Source of the DNA: Alkalicella caledoniensis
Lineage (GTDB): Bacteria > Bacillota > Proteinivoracia > Proteinivoracales > Proteinivoracaceae
DNA length: 64,000 nucleotides
Direction: 5' to 3'
Assembly (NCBI RefSeq): GCF_014467015.1
Contig: NZ_CP058559.1
Location: forward strand, 1,240,001 to 1,304,000
Below the pieces are notes generated by a model. The model saw only the letters and a program-made list of their open reading frames with translations. It was not told the DNA's origin and searched no databases. The position numbers were made by a program, and so were the translations under genes. How positions within the stretch are numbered: position 1 is the stretch's first letter; every line of letters starts with the position of its first letter. Of the stretch, positions 50,913 to 60,249 are shown in pieces.

Positions 50913-51596
50913 ATGGGACGGAAAAGTAAATTCTCACCAGAAGAAAAATTAGAATATGTTCTTAGGTGTATAGAAGGGAAAGATTCCTTTAGCCATGCAG
51001 CTAAGTTAATTGGTGTTGGCAAAGATACCATGAGGAGATGGGTTAGCAATTATAAGTCGTTGGGTATTAAAGGATTGAATACTAGTTCTAAGAATTTCAG
51101 TCACTCTTCACATGTAAAGGAAATGGCAGTAAGCGAATACCTTTCTGGTAAGGGTTCCTTGCACGATATATGTTTTGAATATGGAATACGCTCTACAGGG
51201 ATGCTTCATACGTGGGTTATGAAGTATAATAGTCATGAGAAACTAAAATCTTCTGGTACTGGAGGAGTATCTATCATGACTAAAGGAAGAAAAACTGATT
51301 TTGATGAAAGAGTAGAAATAGTAAAGTACTGCATTGAAAATAAACACAACTATGCCGAAACAGCGCAGAAGTTTAAGGTATCTTACCAACAGGTCAATTC
51401 ATGGACTAATAAATACTTAAAACAAGGTATAGATGCCCTTCAAGACAAGCGTGGTAAAAGAAAAACAGAAGATGAGATGTCTGAGATGGACAAACTCAAA
51501 GCCCAAAACAAACTGCTTGAAGCTGAGATTCTCGAAAAGCAAATGGAGATAGATTTTCTAAAAAAGTTGGAAGAAATACAAAGGAGGCGGTCTTAA
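50913..51596 (+). CDS. IS3/IS150-group transposase OrfA
   Basis: The 227-residue protein has two helix-turn-helix units in tandem, about residues 5-50 (FSPEEKLEYVLRCIEGKDSF) and 130-175 (DFDERVEIVKYCIENKHNYA), and a C-terminal leucine-zipper coiled coil (about 185-222), the standard IS150-group OrfA layout. AAGGAGGAG precedes the ATG. Near the end, A AAA AAG at 51560-51566 is in the OrfA frame and is a classic -1 slippery heptamer leading into orfB. Confidence 0.9.
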   Translation: MGRKSKFSPEEKLEYVLRCIEGKDSFSHAAKLIGVGKDTMRRWVSNYKSLGIKGLNTSSKNFSHSSHVKEMAVSEYLSGKGSLHDICFEYGIRSTGMLHTWVMKYNSHEKLKSSGTGGVSIMTKGRKTDFDERVEIVKYCIENKHNYAETAQKFKVSYQQVNSWTNKYLKQGIDALQDKRGKRKTEDEMSEMDKLKAQNKLLEAEILEKQMEIDFLKKLEEIQRRRS

Positions 51597-52486
51597 GCCA
51601 GGTAAGGTATGAAACCATCTATCTGACAATACATGAACTTCATGATACTAAAGGTTATGCACTCACAAAACTATGTAATTTTGCTGGAATTGAACGATCT
51701 TCATATTACAAATGGTTAAACAGAGAAGCAAGTGGCAATGAGCAGTTTAACAAGACTTTAATACCGTTGATCCGAGATGCTTATGAAGAGAGAGGCGGTA
51801 TACTTGGGTATCGTCAGATGACAATCAAGTTAAACAGAGAGCAAGAATTCCATGTAAACCATAAGAGAATCTACAGACTGATGAAAATACTAGGTTTAAA
51901 ATCTGTATGCCGTAGAAAGAGAAAGAACTACATCAAATCCACACCAGAAATAACTGCAAAAAACGTACTAAGCAGGAACTTTAATGCAAATGGATTTGGG
52001 GAGAAATGGCTTACTGATGTAACAGAGATGAAATATGGAATCAGTGGAAAAGCCTATCTAAGTGCCATACTTGACCTCGGAGATAAGAGCATAGTGTCCT
52101 TTGTCTTGGGTCATTCAAATAACAATGCACTGGTATTTAGAACGTTTGACATTGCCCATGAGCAGCACCCTGATGCAAAGCCGATCTTCCACAGTGATAG
52201 GGGATTTCAATACACCTCAAAAATGTTCAAAAACAAGTTGGATAATGCGGGTATGACACAAAGTATGTCTAGAGTATCCCGTTGCATAGATAACGGCCCT
52301 ATGGAGGCATTTTTTGGTACTCTTAAGTCAGAAATGTACTACCTAAGTAAATTCAATTCATATGAGGAGTTGGAAGCCGCGGTCATTGAATACATAGAGT
52401 ATTACAATAACCGTCGTTACCAGAAGAGGCTTGAGTGCATGACACCAATGGAGTATAGGCAGCACCTTTTAAGTAAGGTAGCATAA
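51566..52486 (+). CDS. IS3/IS150-group transposase OrfB (expressed by -1 frameshift)
   Basis: The frame continues from the slippery site as VGRNTKEAVLSQVRYETIYL and gives an OrfAB fusion of about 524 residues. No ATG start precedes the conserved domain; the first ordinary candidate is a TTG at 51767, too late to include the N-terminal HTH_21 region. The catalytic core shows the DDE triad in WLTDVTEM, HSDRGFQYTS and CIDNGPMEAFFGTLKSE. The C-terminus ends YNNRRYQKRLECMTPMEYR, complete for the family. No internal stop is seen, so the element may be active. Confidence 0.88.
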   Translation, partial: VGRNTKEAVLSQVRYETIYLTIHELHDTKGYALTKLCNFAGIERSSYYKWLNREASGNEQFNKTLIPLIRDAYEERGGILGYRQMTIKLNREQEFHVNHKRIYRLMKILGLKSVCRRKRKNYIKSTPEITAKNVLSRNFNANGFGEKWLTDVTEMKYGISGKAYLSAILDLGDKSIVSFVLGHSNNNALVFRTFDIAHEQHPDAKPIFHSDRGFQYTSKMFKNKLDNAGMTQSMSRVSRCIDNGPMEAFFGTLKSEMYYLSKFNSYEELEAAVIEYIEYYNNRRYQKRLECMTPMEYRQHLLSKVA

Positions 52487-53829: not shown

Positions 53830-54177
53830 TTAATTTTGATCAGTTATTAGATTAGTTAAAACTGAGCTTATGATACTAAGAACAATGGCTCCCAGTACTG
53901 CAGGCCAAAAGCCAGCAACTGTAAAACCAGTTACATTCGCAGCTACTAACCACAGTATAAATCCATTTATTACAAAGGTAAAAAGACCAAGTGTAAGTAT
54001 AGTTATAGGAAAAGCAACTAGTTTTATTATAGGCCTTATAACTGCATTTGCTAAACCTAATACCAATGCTGCAATTAAAGCAGAACCAAAACTTGTTATT
54101 TCTATACTTTGGATAATCTGTGCTGTTAAAAACAACGCTAACCCATTTATTATCCATCTCCATACTAATCCTCTCAT
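53830..54177 (-). CDS. Four-helix membrane protein of the phage-holin 4 superfamily (YvlD-like)
   Basis: A 115-residue protein with four hydrophobic helices and the family motif LVLGLANAVIRPIIKLVAFPITILTLGLF. Homologs such as B. subtilis YvlD are chromosomal and associated with envelope stress operons; despite the family name there is no phage context here. GGAGGAG precedes the ATG. It is 15 bp upstream of the flavoprotein gene, same direction. Confidence 0.85.
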   Translation of the reverse strand: MRGLVWRWIINGLALFLTAQIIQSIEITSFGSALIAALVLGLANAVIRPIIKLVAFPITILTLGLFTFVINGFILWLVAANVTGFTVAGFWPAVLGAIVLSIISSVLTNLITDQN

Positions 54178-54366: not shown

Positions 54367-55068
54367 TTAATCGTTATCTGGTTGTGGTGGATAAAAATCT
54401 GGGAAAGGTAGCAGATCGAATTCTTCACATGGGTCAACATCTGGGAATTCTTCACATAGGGGAGGTGTTGGGCAAAATCCAAAAGTTGGTACAAGAAGTT
54501 GTACTTCTGCTACGGATTTTAGAATAATGAATGCTCCGATAGGTATGAATGCTAATGCATCTCCATCTTCTGTTGTGTCAGGGAATTCTAAAATGGGATC
54601 CCCAGCAACTTGGAATATGGCTTCTGCTATTGCTTCCATTCTATCAAGTTCAGGCATATATAAAATTACATCTTTCTCGAAGCATACAATATTTTCAAAC
54701 TCATCTCCATTGGAAGGTATTACCTGGACTTCAATACCTTGTGCATTTACAACAAATAATTCAACCCTTGCACAAACTTCAATTTGAATTCTTGCTAACG
54801 GTCCACCGTTAATAAGCTCTCTATTTAGAACTTCGTACTCTACAGAGTTAGGAACTATCCTAGCAAATGAAAAAGTTACATCTTCCTCATCCCAACCATC
54901 TGGTAGTTCCCAAGCAAATTCAAAGAATTCACATTCTTGCTGTCTACAAGCATCGTAAACTTTTGTAGTTATTATGCAGTCAATTTCAGGAGCTGGTGGT
55001 GTCGGTGGTTTGGGGGGCTTAGGCTTAAAAAATGTTTCTTGAACAGCATCTTTCATTTTCTCGTCCAT
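54367..55068 (-). CDS. Acidic Cys-rich protein A, probable spore coat/exosporium protein
   Basis: A 233-residue protein of unknown family. A proline-rich lead (KPKPPKPPTPPAPE) is followed by a conserved block CIITTKVYDACRQQECEFF. Other conserved parts are GGPLAR, CFEKDVILY, AIAEAIFQ, IPIGAFII, KSVAEVQLLVP and a C-terminal FCPTPPLCEEFPDVD. There are eight or so cysteines and a strongly acidic overall charge. A paralog lies at 56157-56834, about 1.1 kb away on the other strand. No signal peptide is seen, as for many coat proteins. GGAGG precedes the ATG and a sigma-K-like promoter lies upstream. The coat role is inferred from the promoter and neighbours. Confidence 0.65.
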   Translation of the reverse strand: MDEKMKDAVQETFFKPKPPKPPTPPAPEIDCIITTKVYDACRQQECEFFEFAWELPDGWDEEDVTFSFARIVPNSVEYEVLNRELINGGPLARIQIEVCARVELFVVNAQGIEVQVIPSNGDEFENIVCFEKDVILYMPELDRMEAIAEAIFQVAGDPILEFPDTTEDGDALAFIPIGAFIILKSVAEVQLLVPTFGFCPTPPLCEEFPDVDPCEEFDLLPFPDFYPPQPDND

Positions 55069-55109
55069 ATATCTGAACCTCCTATAACTTAATTGGATTA
55101 TCTTCTCTA

Positions 55110-55138
55110 CAAGATATGTATCACTCCCCTAAGTGGTG
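55110..55138 (-). promoter_or_regulatory. Sigma-K-like promoter of protein A
   Basis: On the minus strand CACC (55138-55135), 16 nt, then CATATCTTG (55118-55110). The mother-cell sigma-K consensus is roughly mACm-N16-CATAnnnTA, so only the last base of the -10 differs. The paralog has the same CACC-N16-CATA layout. Confidence 0.5.
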
Positions 55139-55165
55139 AATGCCTAATTTAAAAACTAATAAAAA

Positions 55166-55195
55166 AAATCATAGGCCTTGGGCCTATGATTTACT
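55166..55195 (-). terminator. Terminator of the CAP-domain gene
   Basis: AAATCATAGGCC / GGCCTATGATTT forms a 12-bp stem with a 3-nt loop followed on the minus strand by TTTTTATTAG. It overlaps the stop codon region. Confidence 0.85.
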
Positions 55196-55940
55196 TTTGT
55201 ATAAATAATTGGGTTACAAGTACACCTGATGAGTTCTGATCTACTATCCCGATACCAACATGGGTAAAGTTGGGATTTAATATATTGTTTTTATGACCTG
55301 TACTTGCCATCAATCTTAAATGTGAAATATAAGGGCTTTGTGATGCCGAGATGTTTTCCGCAGCTCTTCTATATGAAATACCTGCATTTCTCATCATTTC
55401 AAATGGAGTCCCGTAGGTTGGTGAATTATGAGCAAAGTAATTTAAGTCTTTCATATCCTGGCTTTTAATGCGAGCCCATTTGCTAACCTCAACGTCAATT
55501 TGTAGTGGAGCCACACCAACTTTTGCTCTTTCCTCATTGATTCTACTTAGCATTTCCATTTCCCTTTGGGATACTGTGTGGTTTGCTGAGGGTTGAGGGC
55601 TTACTTGTGGTTGTGGTGCTGGAGTTGGAGCAGGATTTTGTTGTGTTGGTTGACTGTGTTGTGGTGCAGGATCTTGCGCTGTAGTGGTTGGGGGTGTACT
55701 AATTCTTGACCTTCTATTTGTCCAAAAATCTCCCAAGTTGTTATTTTGAGTGGATGGTGCTGGGGTTGTTGTACTTGGTTGTACTGGAGTGCTGTTATTG
55801 GTAGGTACTGTCTGCTGGTTACTTACGTAATTTTGTAAAAAATTTCTATATGTGCTTGCTTGCACAGACAGGGGTGTACTAAGAATGGCAGTAATTGATA
55901 ATCCAGTTATTAAAGTTACTGTAATTATTTTTCTCTTCAA
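55191..55940 (-). CDS. Secreted CAP-domain (SCP/YkwD-like) protein
   Basis: A 249-residue exported protein. The signal peptide ends near SVQAS. A low-complexity linker rich in Pro, Thr, Gln and Asn (about residues 45-120) is followed by a CAP domain from about residue 125: EMLSRINEERAKVGVAPLQIDVEVSKWA-type helix, DLNYFAHNSPTYGTPFEMM, RRAAENISASQSP, WMxSxGHKxNIL-like STGHKNNILNPNFTHVGIGI and LVTQLFIQK. Homologs such as YkwD and the spore protein YabG-associated CAP proteins are secreted or coat-linked. The start is a TTG behind AGGAGGA. It lies between the two paralogous acidic proteins. Confidence 0.88.
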   Translation of the reverse strand: MKRKIITVTLITGLSITAILSTPLSVQASTYRNFLQNYVSNQQTVPTNNSTPVQPSTTTPAPSTQNNNLGDFWTNRRSRISTPPTTTAQDPAPQHSQPTQQNPAPTPAPQPQVSPQPSANHTVSQREMEMLSRINEERAKVGVAPLQIDVEVSKWARIKSQDMKDLNYFAHNSPTYGTPFEMMRNAGISYRRAAENISASQSPYISHLRLMASTGHKNNILNPNFTHVGIGIVDQNSSGVLVTQLFIQK

Positions 55941-56104
55941 TCTAGTTCCTCCTCTATTTTGTCTATATAAACATTCTAAGGGTCTTTTTGCATACTATCA
56001 AATGTAATATCTGCCTAGGTTGGTATAAAACTGAAATTAAACCAGTGTTATGTAATTTTTAAGGAATAAGTTGGAATTTATGCAATTCCCAAGGATAAAT
56101 CCTG

Positions 56105-56133
56105 CACCAACACTGATTTCTAAACATAAATTA
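56105..56133 (+). promoter_or_regulatory. Sigma-K-like promoter of protein B
   Basis: CACC (56105-56108), 16 nt, then CATAAATTA (56125-56133) matches the sigma-K consensus -10 (CATAnnnTA) fully. It lies 23 bp before the ATG at 56157. This points to late mother-cell expression. Confidence 0.6.
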
Positions 56134-56156
56134 TTGTGAAAGGAGGGTATAAGTAA

Positions 56157-56834
56157 ATGAGAGAAAAATACAATCCTAGTACAAGACACGCTGGTTCATT
56201 CCCTGATCCAACGGGGGTAGACTGTATCATTACTACAAAGGTTTACGATGCCTGTAGACAACAAGAATGTGAGTTTTTTGAGTTTGGAGCTTTTGAAGTA
56301 CCATTCGGATGGGACTTCGAGGATATTTTCGCGTATGCTGAGGTAGTACCTAGTTCAGTAAGTTTTGACGTTCTAAATATTAGTCTAATTGAAGGTGGTC
56401 CCCTTGCACGGGTTCAGATGAGAGTTTGTGCTGATATCAATGCTTTTATAGTAAACACTAGAACAGGTGAAGAAGAACAAATAATAGGCGATAATGGTTT
56501 TGAAGACAATGAAGTTTGCTTTGAGAAAGATGTTATTTTATATCTTCCAGAACCTGATAAAATGGATGCAATTGCTGAAGCAATCTTCCAAATAGCTGGT
56601 GAGCCTGTTATAGAAGAGTTTGACGACACTGAAGATGAAATGTTTAATATTTTTATTCCTATTGGTGCATTTATTATTGTCAAGTCAGTGGCCGAAGTTC
56701 AATTGTTAGTACCTGTTTATGGTTTTTGCCCAACACCACCACTTTGCGAAGAGTTTCCTGATGTCGATGCTTGTGAAGAATTCCAACTATTACCATTCCC
56801 CGATTTTTATCCACCTCAGCCTGAGGATGAATAG
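56157..56834 (+). CDS. Acidic Cys-rich protein B, probable spore coat/exosporium protein
   Basis: A 225-residue paralog of the protein at 54367-55068. Both share the block CIITTKVYDACRQQECEFF, GGPLAR, CFEKDVILYLP, MDAIAEAIFQ, IPIGAFII and the C-terminal run FCPTPPLCEEFPDVD...FPDFYPPQP almost unchanged, while the N-terminal 20 residues and the middle differ. The cysteine positions are conserved, which suggests disulfide or metal cross-linking in an assembled layer. GGAGGG precedes the ATG. It is followed by a GerE-like regulator and a coat-associated ATP-grasp gene. No database family is recognised. Confidence 0.68.
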   Translation: MREKYNPSTRHAGSFPDPTGVDCIITTKVYDACRQQECEFFEFGAFEVPFGWDFEDIFAYAEVVPSSVSFDVLNISLIEGGPLARVQMRVCADINAFIVNTRTGEEEQIIGDNGFEDNEVCFEKDVILYLPEPDKMDAIAEAIFQIAGEPVIEEFDDTEDEMFNIFIPIGAFIIVKSVAEVQLLVPVYGFCPTPPLCEEFPDVDACEEFQLLPFPDFYPPQPEDE

Positions 56835-56879
56835 CAATTGCCGGTTTTTTCCGGCTAATGCTATATGAGGATGAAAATT

Positions 56880-57491
56880 ATGAATCTGCTTATAATCGTC
56901 CATAACAGTTTTGATAGTATAAATAATGAGATAATTATTTATTTAAAAAACAAGCAAAAGGTTCAGGTGGTAGATGTTGATAATAGCAATTTTAAGAGTA
57001 TATTAGAAAACTACAAAGGTGTAAAAATTTGGGCCAGTAATTGTTCTAATTTCCTTGGCGATATCTGGGAAGATATTTTACAAGATAAAAGTAGTAGCCT
57101 TGTTTTAACAGAAAATAACTCTGTACTAAAAACTGATAAATTTATAGCTCAGGGGGTAAATTTCATAGTCCTTCCTCCCAATCAGTGCCTCTATCTAAAT
57201 ACCAAAAACCACAAAGTCCTAAGGGCTGCTGTTGAAATATTAACTTGGTCTGTTGATAAGATGAAAATAAAAGAGCGTAGCTTAGTTGCCTTAAGTAGAA
57301 AAGAAAATGAAGTTGTCAATTTGTTGTTACAAGGATTAGATGATAGAGAAATAGCTAAGCAACTATTTATCAGTGACAAAACAGTCAGGAACCACATAAG
57401 TAATATCTTACAAAAAATCTGTCTTAGAAATCGTACTCAACTTGTTTTGTGGGCTTTACAGGAAATGGGAGAAATAGAGCAGCTATCGTAA
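56880..57491 (+). CDS. GerE-like LuxR-family regulator
   Basis: A 203-residue protein with a C-terminal LuxR/GerE helix-turn-helix: LSRKENEVVNLLLQGLDDREIAKQLFISDKTVRNHISNILQKI (about residues 140-183). The N-terminal 125 residues look like a receiver-shaped alpha/beta fold (MNLLIIVHNSF start) but lack the phosphoacceptor Asp and the usual Lys, so response to a kinase is not supported. I prefer the ATG at 56880 (GAGG nine bases upstream) over the one at 56865. It follows the sigma-K-type gene for protein B by 45 bp. By analogy with GerE it may tune late coat genes. Confidence 0.8.
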   Translation: MNLLIIVHNSFDSINNEIIIYLKNKQKVQVVDVDNSNFKSILENYKGVKIWASNCSNFLGDIWEDILQDKSSSLVLTENNSVLKTDKFIAQGVNFIVLPPNQCLYLNTKNHKVLRAAVEILTWSVDKMKIKERSLVALSRKENEVVNLLLQGLDDREIAKQLFISDKTVRNHISNILQKICLRNRTQLVLWALQEMGEIEQLS

Positions 57492-57508
57492 AAGATAGCT
57501 GCTTTTTC
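57478..57508 (+). terminator. Terminator of the LuxR gene
   Basis: AGCAGCTATC (57478-57487) and GATAGCTGCT (57494-57503) form a perfect 10-bp stem followed by TTTTTC. It overlaps the stop codon. Confidence 0.88.
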
Positions 57509-57556
57509 ATCAACTTCTTTTTATTCTTCACATAAGTTTGTAAAGGTTGTGAAAAA

Positions 57557-58393
57557 ATGAGAAACAAAAATGTAAGGGCTAAAAGTTTAGCTAGTAAGTT
57601 ATCCAAATATAAAATTCTACTTCAATCAGACTTTATTCGTCCTCATTTGTTAGAAACTATTGAGTTCACAGAAGAAAGCCTTTTAAGGATGATTGAAAAA
57701 TATAGTTTTATTTATATAAAACCTGTTTCTGGTTCTTTCGGTAGGGATATTTTATCCTTGGAGATAGCCAAGGAACCTAACACTCATTACGTTGTTAGAA
57801 ACGATGATAAAATCTTGTGGAAAGGTAATTTTAAGGAATCAGTGTATATCATTAATGCGTATATTGCTAGAAGAAAATTTCTAATACAACAGGGAATAAG
57901 ACCATTTGAGTACAAAGGTAAACATGTTGATATCAGGGTATTTATTCAAAAACCTGATAAGCTCTGGATTGTCTCTGGTCTAGGTGTTAAGGTGGCTAAG
58001 TCTAAAAATATGATAGTAACGAATTATAATCAGGGTGCTAGTATCTTAAGTCTAAAGGATTATCTGTCCTCTGGAAATTTTCAACATGATTTCATTAAAA
58101 TTAATCATGTATTAGAAGAGCTTTGTCTCGAAGGTGGTGAAGTATTAAACTCATATTATCCTCGATTTAGGGAGTTAGGGTTTGATGTGATCTTAGATGA
58201 ATACTTGAAGCCATGGATAATAGAGGTAAATACTAAGCCCAAGTATGAAATGTTTAGGGAGATTGATGTGCAGCTATATAAAAAAATAGACAGATATCAT
58301 GAAGACATTCTTAGGCAGTATAAAAAGGAAAAAGCAAGTTTTAAAAAAGTCGATAAAATATACTCACCCTTTAATGGAAAGCGAATAGACTAA
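57557..58393 (+). CDS. YheC/YheD-like ATP-grasp, endospore coat-associated
   Basis: YheC and YheD are ATP-grasp proteins that join the B. subtilis spore coat early. The 278-residue protein shows YIKPVSGSFGRDILSLE (the ATP-grasp lysine and glycine loop), DIRVFIQKPDKLWIVSGLGVKV (the RxxV/DxR nucleotide site), NYNQGASILSL and FDVILDEYLKPWIIEVNTKPK (metal ligands Asp, Glu and Asn). The N-terminal YheC domain is short, at about 40 residues. AAAGG precedes the ATG. The substrate of any ligase activity is unknown. It is followed by a gene with GGAGGTG ribosome site 30 bp downstream. Confidence 0.82.
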   Translation: MRNKNVRAKSLASKLSKYKILLQSDFIRPHLLETIEFTEESLLRMIEKYSFIYIKPVSGSFGRDILSLEIAKEPNTHYVVRNDDKILWKGNFKESVYIINAYIARRKFLIQQGIRPFEYKGKHVDIRVFIQKPDKLWIVSGLGVKVAKSKNMIVTNYNQGASILSLKDYLSSGNFQHDFIKINHVLEELCLEGGEVLNSYYPRFRELGFDVILDEYLKPWIIEVNTKPKYEMFREIDVQLYKKIDRYHEDILRQYKKEKASFKKVDKIYSPFNGKRID

Positions 58394-58422
58394 AACATAA
58401 GACAGTATGAGGAGGTGTACAA

Positions 58423-59448
58423 ATGTCCTATAAAGTAATCAAAGGTGCAAAACAGTTAGAAATTGATGGGAAGGAAATCGAAAATAATATATACCTTCCT
58501 TTAGAAGCCTTGTGGGACGATTACACCATATTGAAGGACCATAAAGTAATATTTATAGATAGCCCCCTGAATAACTTAGAAGTAGGTCTATTGCAGTTAA
58601 ATGGCGAAATAAATTCAACCTTTATAGAACCACTACAGAATTTATTGCAGGGTGCTGGATGTAGGGTGCATCTGTTAGATTCCACTGAGAAAGTCAATAA
58701 AAATATAAATTTGGTCCTTGTTATCAATTCACAAGAAGGTGTTTTTCAAACTGGGTACGGTGGTTATAGGTTAAATGGAAGTAAAAAAATTGCAGCAGAT
58801 ATGGGCTGGGCTTTAGCACGCTTTTTTGAACTTGATTATGTTGCACCACCTGTTAAAGAACAAGCCTCTAGTAAAAATCTTGGGCTGTGGAAGAAGTTTA
58901 CTACTCCATTAGTCTATATTAAGTTCAGAACAGGTGAAGGGCACAATTCTCTTTTAGCAATTTCTGTACTTATGGGGCTTTTTAGATTTGCCACTAAAAC
59001 TTTACCAGTAATTGATGAAAAAATTTTTTCCCCTATTCCTCCACCTTTAGAAAGTAGTGAGGTTAGTATTGTTAATAAAGAAACTCTAGTTGAAGAAAAC
59101 CTTATGGATGTAGCAAAAGAAGGTAATAGTCTAATAGAAAAAAACCATACCCATGACAATGATTTGTTTAGGTATATAAAAATTGAACAAGATCAAGGGC
59201 AAGATCAAGATCTAGATGAAGAACGTGTTAATTCAGATTTGAAGGAGGTTGATTTCATGTCAAAGAAAAGTAGTAATAATAGTCAAGGGAAAAAGGGCAG
59301 ATTAGTAACTGACCCCTCCCCGAAACTTAAAGCTCACATGAAAAAGATCATTGCTAAACAAAAGGCCGAAATTGAAAAAGAAAATAAGGCACCTAACAAT
59401 AAGGGTACTGAATATGCAGCTAAGTTGGCTGGTTTAGGTAAAGGGTGA
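58423..59448 (+). CDS. Degenerate N-acetylmuramoyl-L-alanine amidase-like protein
   Basis: A 341-residue protein. Residues 41-190 can be aligned by eye with amidase_3 domains: KVIFIDSPLNN at the place of KIVIDPGHGG, INSTFIEPLQNLLQGAGCRVHLLD at the place of the helix and strand ending in LTR, NLVLVINSQEG for the SIHANA strand, and VYIKFRTGEGHN for the VLVELGFLSN strand. The zinc ligands (His, Glu, His) and the catalytic Glu are all absent, so no amidase activity is expected. The C-terminal 150 residues are low-complexity, acidic then lysine-rich. GGAGGTG precedes the ATG. It may serve as a peptidoglycan- or coat-binding scaffold; homology is inferred, not proven. Confidence 0.55.
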   Translation: MSYKVIKGAKQLEIDGKEIENNIYLPLEALWDDYTILKDHKVIFIDSPLNNLEVGLLQLNGEINSTFIEPLQNLLQGAGCRVHLLDSTEKVNKNINLVLVINSQEGVFQTGYGGYRLNGSKKIAADMGWALARFFELDYVAPPVKEQASSKNLGLWKKFTTPLVYIKFRTGEGHNSLLAISVLMGLFRFATKTLPVIDEKIFSPIPPPLESSEVSIVNKETLVEENLMDVAKEGNSLIEKNHTHDNDLFRYIKIEQDQGQDQDLDEERVNSDLKEVDFMSKKSSNNSQGKKGRLVTDPSPKLKAHMKKIIAKQKAEIEKENKAPNNKGTEYAAKLAGLGKG

Positions 59449-59489
59449 CAAAGCTGTAAATAGTGGGGGGACCCACTTTGAAATAACGC

Positions 59490-59516
59490 AAATAGCCCCA
59501 AAATGGGGCTATTTGT
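59490..59516. terminator. Bidirectional terminator
   Basis: AAATAGCCCCA / TGGGGCTATTT forms an 11-bp stem with a 3-nt loop. It separates the converging amidase-like and yqeC genes; T-runs are short. Confidence 0.75.
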
Positions 59517-59517
59517 C

Positions 59518-60249
59518 TTATATATGGTCATATACTTTGCTTTTACTGAAGGACACGAATAGAATTTTCTCTAAACCTATGCTTGGGCTTAGGAGTATTT
59601 GTTTTGCTTTTTGAGCAAATGGTTTGTAGCTAGCCTTATACCTCTCTTCAACTGTGTCCCACTGATTGAAACATAAGTATACTTTACTTGTGGATGGTAT
59701 GTTAAAGGAGAATACCCCTCTTTCCATCATTTCTAAAATTAGTTGAAAGTTAATTTCTAAGCCATCAAAGGGCAACAGCTGTGACCTATGGACAGTTTCT
59801 GGCCCCCAAGTTTTTCCCAAGACTTTTGCACCGATGTTGATTATGGTATGGGTAGTGCAACTTGGTATAACTGGTTCCCCTTCTTTCCATACCTTTAGTG
59901 CCTTCATCCGTGCTCCGTCCCCTTCACATAGGATATGATCAAAGGGACCTTTTTCGTACAGGGAATTTGCAGTTTCAGGCTTTATACCTAGATATTTTCC
60001 TTCTTCCTTCTCCGAGTAAAGGAGTGGTGTTTTATTAAATCCATGGCTACCAAAAGTTGAAGAAGTACCTTCCCATTGAAGGGGTAGTATATTTTCATTT
60101 ATGGGAGGCTTATATAGTTTGGTAGTGGATGTTATAATACAATTGTGTAATTGACTAGCTATGAGGAACATACCTGTGGTTTTCCCGCCACCACCTACCA
60201 TTGTTATAAAGCTTTTGGGTTTAATGTCTAGCAGTTTAATAATATCCAT
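59518..60249 (-). CDS. yqeC: Selenium-dependent hydroxylase accessory protein YqeC
   Basis: YqeC is a putative GTPase linked to maturation of selenium-dependent molybdenum hydroxylases such as xanthine dehydrogenase. The 243-residue protein has a P-loop MVGGGGKTTGMFLIA, STTKLYKP, HILCEGDGARMKALKVW and VHRSQLL, diagnostic for the family. The start is an ATG with GGGTGG close upstream. None of the other genes of that pathway (yqeB, xdh, selD) are in the window. It lies 10 bp after fetB and could be co-transcribed with it. Confidence 0.88.
   Translation of the reverse strand: MDIIKLLDIKPKSFITMVGGGGKTTGMFLIASQLHNCIITSTTKLYKPPINENILPLQWEGTSSTFGSHGFNKTPLLYSEKEEGKYLGIKPETANSLYEKGPFDHILCEGDGARMKALKVWKEGEPVIPSCTTHTIINIGAKVLGKTWGPETVHRSQLLPFDGLEINFQLILEMMERGVFSFNIPSTSKVYLCFNQWDTVEERYKASYKPFAQKAKQILLSPSIGLEKILFVSFSKSKVYDHI

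What the first reader, a model, noticed from the sequence alone, without database searches (positions are those of the whole stretch)
54367..59448. Candidate undescribed spore-surface locus: paired acidic Cys-rich paralogs, CAP protein, GerE-like regulator, YheC/D ATP-grasp and a pseudo-amidase
Two paralogs (54367-55068 minus and 56157-56834 plus) share CIITTKVYDACRQQECEFF and FCPTPPLCEEFPDVD with conserved cysteines, and match no family I know. Both are preceded by CACC-N16-CATA, the layout of sigma-K promoters. Between them is a secreted CAP protein; after them come a GerE-like regulator, a YheC/YheD-like ATP-grasp protein and a degenerate amidase. Together this suggests a late mother-cell module building a disulfide- or metal-linked outer spore layer. 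Membership and function are inference.
Basis: partly seen in the sequence, partly recalled or inferred. Interest (0 to 1): 0.78.

Follow-up and report, generated by a model that had tools for sequence, protein, structure and literature searches.

The report
Clostridial outer-spore-layer protein locus
Two sister genes encode sulphur-rich proteins that almost certainly help build the outer shell of a clostridial spore, as distant cousins of a known Bacillus megaterium shell protein; new is that a conserved set of neighbouring genes, above all a CAP-domain gene, travels with them.

Summary
Both paralogs are real, 67-70% identical, and the only two copies in the genome. The claim that they match no family needs correcting. 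They belong to a large clostridial family that is homologous over its full length to NCBIfam NF052457, "BMQ_0737 family morphogenetic spore coat protein" (profile-profile probability 99.2%, E 1.7e-19), although the window proteins fall below that family's cut-off. In 398 genomes of the phylum the family occurs in 143; 142 of these carry spoIVA, and 57 of 58 spoIVA-less genomes lack it. CACC-N16-CATAnnnTA is at chance level in this genome taken alone. Upstream of parB-type genes it is invariant in 10 genomes of the class while its spacer diverges, so it is probably a real sigma-K-type promoter. Five cysteines are nearly invariant. A CAP gene lies within 500 bp in 28 of 67 related loci. The LuxR regulator and the pseudo-amidase (Amidase_3 fold, metal motif lost) are locus partners only within this class, and the YheC/D ATP-grasp is sporadic. 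Best reading: late mother-cell structural or anchoring proteins of the outer coat/exosporium, cross-linked by disulfides. This is a new variant of a known kind; location and cross-linking are untested.

The parts
54367..55068 (-). parA: acidic (pI about 4.05) Cys-rich outer-spore-layer protein, 233 aa, 8 Cys
   Evidence: clusters with the G003 protein of the same family (support 99/99); parA-holin-FMN order also in G003
55111..55138 (-). CACC-N16-CATATCTT, sigma-K-type promoter-like element of parA
   Evidence: G003 parA-type gene has CACC-N15-CATACTAT followed by the same TAGAGAAGATA
55166..55192 (.). Bidirectional terminator-like hairpin separating CAP from parA
55191..55940 (-). CAP-domain (YkwD-like) protein with N-terminal signal-peptide-like segment, 249 aa, TTG start
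   Evidence: PF00188 57.4 bits over cut-off 21.1; TIGR02909 E 2.6e-44 but below its cut-off; adjacent to the family in 28 of 67 distinct loci
56105..56133 (+). CACC-N16-CATAAATTA, footprinted sigma-K-type promoter of parB
   Evidence: Invariant in 10 genomes of the class, spacer about 56% conserved
56134..56149 (+). Conserved leader TTGTGAAAGGAGGGTA with the ribosome-binding site
   Evidence: Nearly invariant in the same 10 genomes
56157..56834 (+). parB: acidic Cys-rich outer-spore-layer protein, 225 aa, 8 Cys
   Evidence: AF2 model pLDDT 85.6, all-beta
56831..56864 (+). Stable hairpin between parB and the regulator, without a U-run
   Evidence: -17 kcal/mol, z -4.0
56865..57491 (+). LuxR-family regulator with degenerate receiver-like N-terminus, 208 aa
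   Evidence: PF00196 65.3 bits; alignment A5
57557..58393 (+). YheC/YheD-like ATP-grasp protein, 278 aa, Mg-binding D..E.N residues kept
   Evidence: PF14398 165.3 bits; A4 invariants K55, D214, E223, N225
58423..59448 (+). Pseudo-amidase: Amidase_3 fold without the zinc-binding GHGG motif, conserved basic tail
   Evidence: CwlD Z 15.8, rmsd 2.3 over 138 residues; DSPL in place of DPGH in the homologs
59488..59516 (.). Terminator-like hairpin closing the yheC-pseudo-amidase unit
53830..54177 (-). Phage_holin_4_2 (YvlD-like) membrane protein, syntenic neighbour in G002, G003, G004, G008
   Evidence: PF04020 118.8 bits

Best explanation
parA and parB are structural or anchoring proteins of the outer spore layers (outer coat or exosporium), divergent relatives of B. 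megaterium BMQ_0737. Shown: homology, restriction to sporulating genomes, a conserved promoter of the sigma-K layout, near-invariant cysteines, fusions to passenger domains, and a conserved CAP neighbour. Inferred: they are made late in the mother cell, fold as a long-stranded beta domain, and are deposited on the forespore surface, where conserved N- and C-terminal cysteines and proline-rich ends (PFPxFxPPQ) join subunits by disulfides. In relatives the domain carries YncE-type propellers or a DUF11 stalk, so it probably fixes other proteins to the spore surface. The LuxR regulator, encoded directly behind parB, probably tunes this late programme, as GerE does in Bacillus. The ATP-grasp protein and the cytosolic pseudo-amidase are likely accessory coat factors.
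For: hhalign of the window subfamily with a set of NF052457-matching proteins: probability 99.2, E 1.7e-19, 187 columns; CAP control probability 0.1; all 10 of that set match NF052457, best E 3.9e-15; loci found with NF052457 score full length with our profile down to E 4.5e-35. BMQ_0737-GFP lies among the outermost layers of B. megaterium spores (PMC4656864). Co-occurrence with spoIVA 142 to 1, Fisher p 2e-11. Promoter footprint in 10 genomes. Cysteines 23, 33, 191, 197, 206 in 75-79 of 80 sequences. Passenger fusions: YncE-type propellers and a 2829-aa protein with 19 DUF11 matches, an architecture like the F-Anchor described in PMC11952670.
Against: The window proteins do not match NF052457 themselves, and no genome in the 249-genome sample passes its cut-off. 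Nothing shows where the protein sits or that it is cross-linked. 198 of 340 spoIVA-bearing genomes lack the family, so it is not a core coat component. The predicted fold has no convincing solved match. Genomes in the co-occurrence test are related, so the p value is optimistic. The sigma-K assignment rests on a consensus known from other species.
Confidence: 0.75

Rival explanations
1. The proteins are the self-assembling subunit of an exosporium basal lattice (CsxA- or ExsY-like 2D array) rather than an anchor or linker.
For: Cysteine-rich, acidic, no obvious signal peptide; CsxA-type arrays in Clostridium are disulfide-linked and other Cys-rich spore proteins self-assemble (PMC7333573); a CsxA-like domain occurs in a DUF11 fusion in C. 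aceticum (PMC11952670), much like the DUF11 fusion found here.
Against: Only one or two genes per genome, often as a fusion in Desulfosporosinus; homology to CsxA itself was not tested; only 8 cysteines per chain.
Confidence: 0.3
2. They are subunits or anchors of spore appendages (ENA-like fibres).
For: Beta-rich model with long strands, proline-rich termini and terminal cysteines; F-ENA anchors in Clostridia combine DUF11 and lattice domains.
Against: No Pfam match at all for the window proteins and none to an appendage family in any of 27 family members; no PDB match by sequence profile and no significant one by fold.
Confidence: 0.12
3. They are vegetative or general envelope proteins and the spore link is incidental.
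For: Co-occurrence is not expression; the CAP neighbour has a signal-peptide-like N-terminus and CAP proteins are common outside spores.
Against: One of 58 spoIVA-less genomes has the family, and that is a 90%-complete MAG whose congeners have spoIVA; sigma-K-type promoter footprint; homology to a spore-coat family.
Confidence: 0.06
4. The whole stretch 54367-59448 is one functional module in which every gene is needed for the same layer.
For: CAP, regulator and pseudo-amidase keep this neighbourhood across three families of the class.
Against: Terminators split it into about four units; YheC/D is sporadic; outside the class the family keeps CAP but not the regulator or pseudo-amidase, and most often stands next to a propeller/coiled-coil gene absent here.
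Confidence: 0.35

Closest known systems
BMQ_0737 family morphogenetic spore coat protein (NCBIfam NF052457; B. megaterium)
   Same: Full-length homology: KVYDxC motif near the N-terminus, LVPxYGFC-x-P motif, C-terminal PPQ, conserved cysteines; spore formers only
   Different: Window proteins are below detection by the model; different neighbours (CAP, LuxR, pseudo-amidase)
CsxA (C. sporogenes / C. botulinum group I exosporium lattice protein)
   Same: Cysteine-rich clostridial spore-surface protein; CsxA-like domain also found with DUF11 stalks
   Different: Homology not tested; the CsxA locus is described with collagen-like genes beside zapA and a U32 peptidase
YkwD family CAP protein (TIGR02909)
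   Same: CAP domain aligned over its full profile, E 2.6e-44
   Different: 152 bits against a cut-off of 171; the genome's other copy passes it
CwlD and other Amidase_3 N-acetylmuramoyl-L-alanine amidases
   Same: Predicted fold, Z 13-16 over about 138 residues
   Different: Metal-binding motif lost in all aligned homologs; no apparent signal peptide; conserved C-terminal basic tail
YheC/YheD coat-associated ATP-grasp proteins of B. subtilis
   Same: PF14398 well above cut-off; [quoted passage not shown]
   Different: N-terminally shorter (278 aa); function unknown in both

Membership tests
BMQ_0737 family (NF052457) | Score above the curated cut-off of 71 bits | tested here: not met
   Window proteins no match at E<=1; best relative 56.6 bits
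BMQ_0737 family (NF052457) | Common descent over the full length | tested here: met
   hhalign E 1.7e-19 over 187 columns through intermediates matching NF052457; control negative
BMQ_0737 family (NF052457) | Found in sporulating bacteria | tested here: met
   142 of 143 positive genomes have spoIVA
BMQ_0737 family (NF052457) | Outermost location; needed for outer-layer integrity | not testable with these tools
   Needs spores and a mutant
CsxA exosporium lattice protein | Sequence homology to CsxA | not tested
CsxA exosporium lattice protein | Self-assembly into a disulfide-linked 2D array | not testable with these tools
   Experiment needed
Endospore appendage subunits (S-ENA, F-ENA/DUF4183) | Match to a Pfam appendage domain | tested here: not met
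   No such family at E<=1 for any of 27 members
Amidase_3 | Amidase_3 fold | tested here: met
   CwlD Z 15.8, 2.3 A over 138 residues; related amidases fill the top rows
Amidase_3 | Zinc-binding GHGG histidine and active site | tested here: not met
   DSPL or NSPL in place of DPGH in all five aligned homologs
GerE (B. subtilis regulator) | LuxR-type helix-turn-helix | tested here: met
   PF00196 E 3.9e-18
GerE (B. subtilis regulator) | Small protein made of the HTH only | tested here: not met
   208 aa with a conserved receiver-like N-terminus; GerE's size is from memory
YheC/D ATP-grasp | PF14398 above cut-off with ATP-grasp residues | tested here: met
   165.3 bits against 26.8; invariant K, D, E, N
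YkwD family CAP (TIGR02909) | Score above 171 bits | tested here: not met
   150-152 bits; PF00188 is met
sigma-K promoter | AC at -35, 15-17 bp spacer, CATAnnnTA at -10, close upstream | tested here: met
   parB in 10 genomes; parA departs at the last base (CATATCTTG). Consensus from memory; RNA start not mapped

The most novel reading that the evidence does not exclude
The BMQ_0737-like domain is a general disulfide-linked anchor of the clostridial spore surface, used alone or fused to propellers or DUF11 stalks, and it works with a dedicated CAP protein; in this class a devoted LuxR regulator and a metal-free pseudo-amidase were added, giving a previously undescribed outer-layer assembly system.
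Probability: 0.4. Interest if true: 0.68.

Novelty: new variant of a known kind. Interest (0 to 1): 0.5.

Why it matters
Outer spore layers of Clostridia are poorly known and share few proteins with Bacillus. This links a widespread clostridial family, in about a third of sampled genomes of the phylum, to a protein with an outer-layer phenotype in B. megaterium. It also points to partners that can be tested: a CAP protein, and a propeller/coiled-coil protein found next to the gene in 60 of 93 related loci.

Tried and rejected
Scanning genome contigs with the single protein found nothing; the alignment was needed. Pfam and PHROGs gave nothing for the paralogs. PDB sequence search gave only chance matches. 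Fold search with the parB model gave no match at E<=0.001, and the second look gave Z of at most 4.5 to alpha-crystallin domains, taken as a common beta arrangement. The promoter motif as a standalone argument was rejected because it is at chance level in this genome. A separate small gene inside the 3' end of the pseudo-amidase frame (strong ribosome site before ATG 59257) was considered; the tail is conserved in frame in the homologs, so it was not called a separate gene. Plasmid search for annotated relatives found none. Literature searches for CAP-domain proteins in spores found nothing specific. The 'metal-linked layer' idea has no support.

Full report
What is there. The two paralogs are 67-70% identical and are the only two copies in the 3.7-Mb single-contig genome. 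Both are acidic (pI about 4.05) with 8 cysteines each. Their N-termini (MREKYNPSTR..., MDEKMKDAVQ...) show no obvious signal peptide, whereas the CAP protein between them begins with one by eye.

Family. Pfam and PHROGs have nothing for the paralogs, and NCBIfam does not match them directly. A search of 61 genomes found relatives in 22. An alignment of 27 of these (A1) contains 7 members that match NCBIfam NF052457, 'BMQ_0737 family morphogenetic spore coat protein', best E 5.9e-11. In reverse, loci found with NF052457 in 249 genomes score along their whole length with the A1 profile, down to E 4.5e-35 for loci not in A1. A direct profile comparison of the window subfamily (A7) with ten NF052457-matching proteins (A8, all ten match) gives probability 99.2 and E 1.7e-19 over 187 columns; a CAP alignment used as control gives probability 0.1. 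The homology is therefore shown, but membership by the curated cut-off is not met. [quoted passage not shown] megaterium spores (title of Manetsberger 2014, read only as a citation), and its GFP fusion lies among the outermost proteins (PMC4656864).

Distribution. In a 398-genome sample of the phylum (completeness filter 90%), 143 genomes carry the family and 340 carry spoIVA. Only one family-positive genome lacks spoIVA (G010, a 90%-complete MAG whose congeners have it); 57 of 58 spoIVA-less genomes lack the family (Fisher p 2e-11, optimistic because genomes are related). Named hosts in the genome collection include Alkaliphilus, Thermoanaerobacter, Caldanaerobacter, Desulfosporosinus, Tissierella and Thermoanaerobacterium.

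Promoter. CACC-N15/16-CATAnnnT occurs upstream of both paralogs, but such patterns arise by chance in this genome: 12 hits of the stricter form against 23 for a reversed control. Comparison rescues it. In 10 genomes of the same class, CACC, a 16-bp spacer and CATAnnnTA sit just upstream of the start codon. All 10 fixed motif positions are invariant, while the spacer averages 56% identity to its consensus; the following TTGTGAAAGGAGGGTA, which holds the ribosome site, is also nearly invariant. The parA-type genes of the window and of G003 share a second version (CACC-N15/16-CATA followed by TAGAGAAGATA). The layout fits the sigma-K consensus as I know it from Bacillus; the RNA start is not mapped.

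Protein. The AlphaFold model of parB (80-sequence alignment A2) has mean pLDDT 85.6 and most of the core above 95. It is all-beta with very long strands (22-47, 83-100, 162-185), and the termini are less sure. No PDB fold matched at E<=0.001, and the second look reached only Z 4.5, which does not prove the fold new. Cysteines 23, 33, 191, 197 and 206 are present in 75-79 of 80 sequences. In Desulfosporosinus and relatives the domain forms the C-terminus of proteins of about 520 aa whose N-terminal part is a YncE/lactonase-type propeller. In one genome it ends a 2829-aa protein with 19 DUF11 matches, an architecture close to the F-Anchor of C. aceticum (DUF4183, four DUF11, CsxA-like domain; PMC11952670). 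These fusions suggest that the domain fixes passengers to the spore surface.

Neighbours. In 28 of 67 distinct non-fusion loci a CAP gene lies within 500 bp, nearly always on the opposite strand. The genome has only two YkwD-type CAP genes, so a chance adjacency would have a probability near 0.001 per locus. The regulator accompanies parB-type genes in G002, G004-G008, G010, G011 and G012 but not the second G008 copy nor the parA-type gene of G003. Hits to LuxR-type proteins in Thermoanaerobacter-like loci are ordinary response regulators several kb away. The pseudo-amidase is found in eight relatives plus the window. YheC/D is present in the window, G002, G004, beside the second G008 copy, and in a few distant loci. 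Across the broader family the commonest neighbour, in 60 of 93 loci at a median of about 110 bp, is a 400-650-aa protein that by eye combines propeller-like repeats with a C-terminal coiled coil and has no significant Pfam family; it was not found in the window's class. Glycosyltransferases are frequent near the fusion forms.

Individual genes. The regulator's HTH is LuxR-type; its N-terminus looks by eye like a receiver without the phospho-acceptor (inference), so 'GerE-like' holds only in the sense of Pfam's family name. The ATP-grasp protein keeps the residues invariant in its group. The pseudo-amidase model (moderate confidence, mean pLDDT 65; disordered middle) matches Amidase_3 enzymes with Z 13-16 over about 138 residues, CwlD among the top. 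The DPGHGG metal motif is replaced by DSPL or NSPL in all five aligned homologs, so it is very likely inactive. It has no apparent signal peptide, unlike CwlD as I know it, which fits a cytosolic mother-cell role.

Transcription units. Terminator-like hairpins lie between CAP and parA and after the pseudo-amidase; a hairpin flanks the end of the regulator gene; a stable hairpin without a U-run lies between parB and the regulator. I read this as parA alone, CAP alone, parB-regulator, and yheC-pseudo-amidase. The tree places parA with the G003 protein (99/99), so the duplication predates the split of these two genera.

Conclusion. The most likely function is a late mother-cell structural or anchoring protein of the outer coat or exosporium, cross-linked through conserved cysteines. 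Homology, distribution, promoter conservation and neighbourhood are shown; localisation, cross-linking and the role of each neighbour are inferred. The finding extends a known kind of spore protein into a divergent clostridial form with a newly recognised conserved context.

Noticed in passing
L086:6551-7834 (-), L056:5534-7129 (-), L076:8717-10546 (+) and others: A 400-650-aa protein with propeller-like repeats and a C-terminal coiled coil (by eye; no significant Pfam family for the one scanned) sits about 100 bp from the family gene in 60 of 93 loci but was not found in the window's class. It is a strong candidate for an unnamed spore-surface partner.
   Followed up: partly
L108:108-8597 (+): A 2829-aa Desulfosporosinus MAG protein with 19 DUF11 matches ending in the family domain, like a stalk anchored to the spore surface.
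   Followed up: partly
L079:1939-2565 and six other loci: A cysteine-rich DUF4489 protein recurs about 2 kb from the family gene in seven loci.
   Followed up: no
window 59242-59448: AAGGAGG followed by an in-frame ATG at 59257 inside the pseudo-amidase gene; the same Met is preceded by GGAGG-like sequence in G004 and G002, so an internal start making a 63-aa basic tail protein is possible.
   Followed up: partly
L059, L099, L124: Family hits in MAG contigs labelled Flavobacteriales, Actinobacteria and Desulfovibrio are most likely clostridial contigs binned wrongly; not checked further.
   Followed up: no
window 50913-52486: ORFs that look like an IS3-type transposase pair lie about 2 kb from the locus, next to the FMN-dependent dehydrogenase gene; the changed gene order relative to G002/G004 may be linked to it.
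   Followed up: no
window 59518-60249: YqeC selenium-cofactor protein gene directly follows the locus on the other strand; a yqeC gene also lies near the pseudo-amidase in G002.
   Followed up: no
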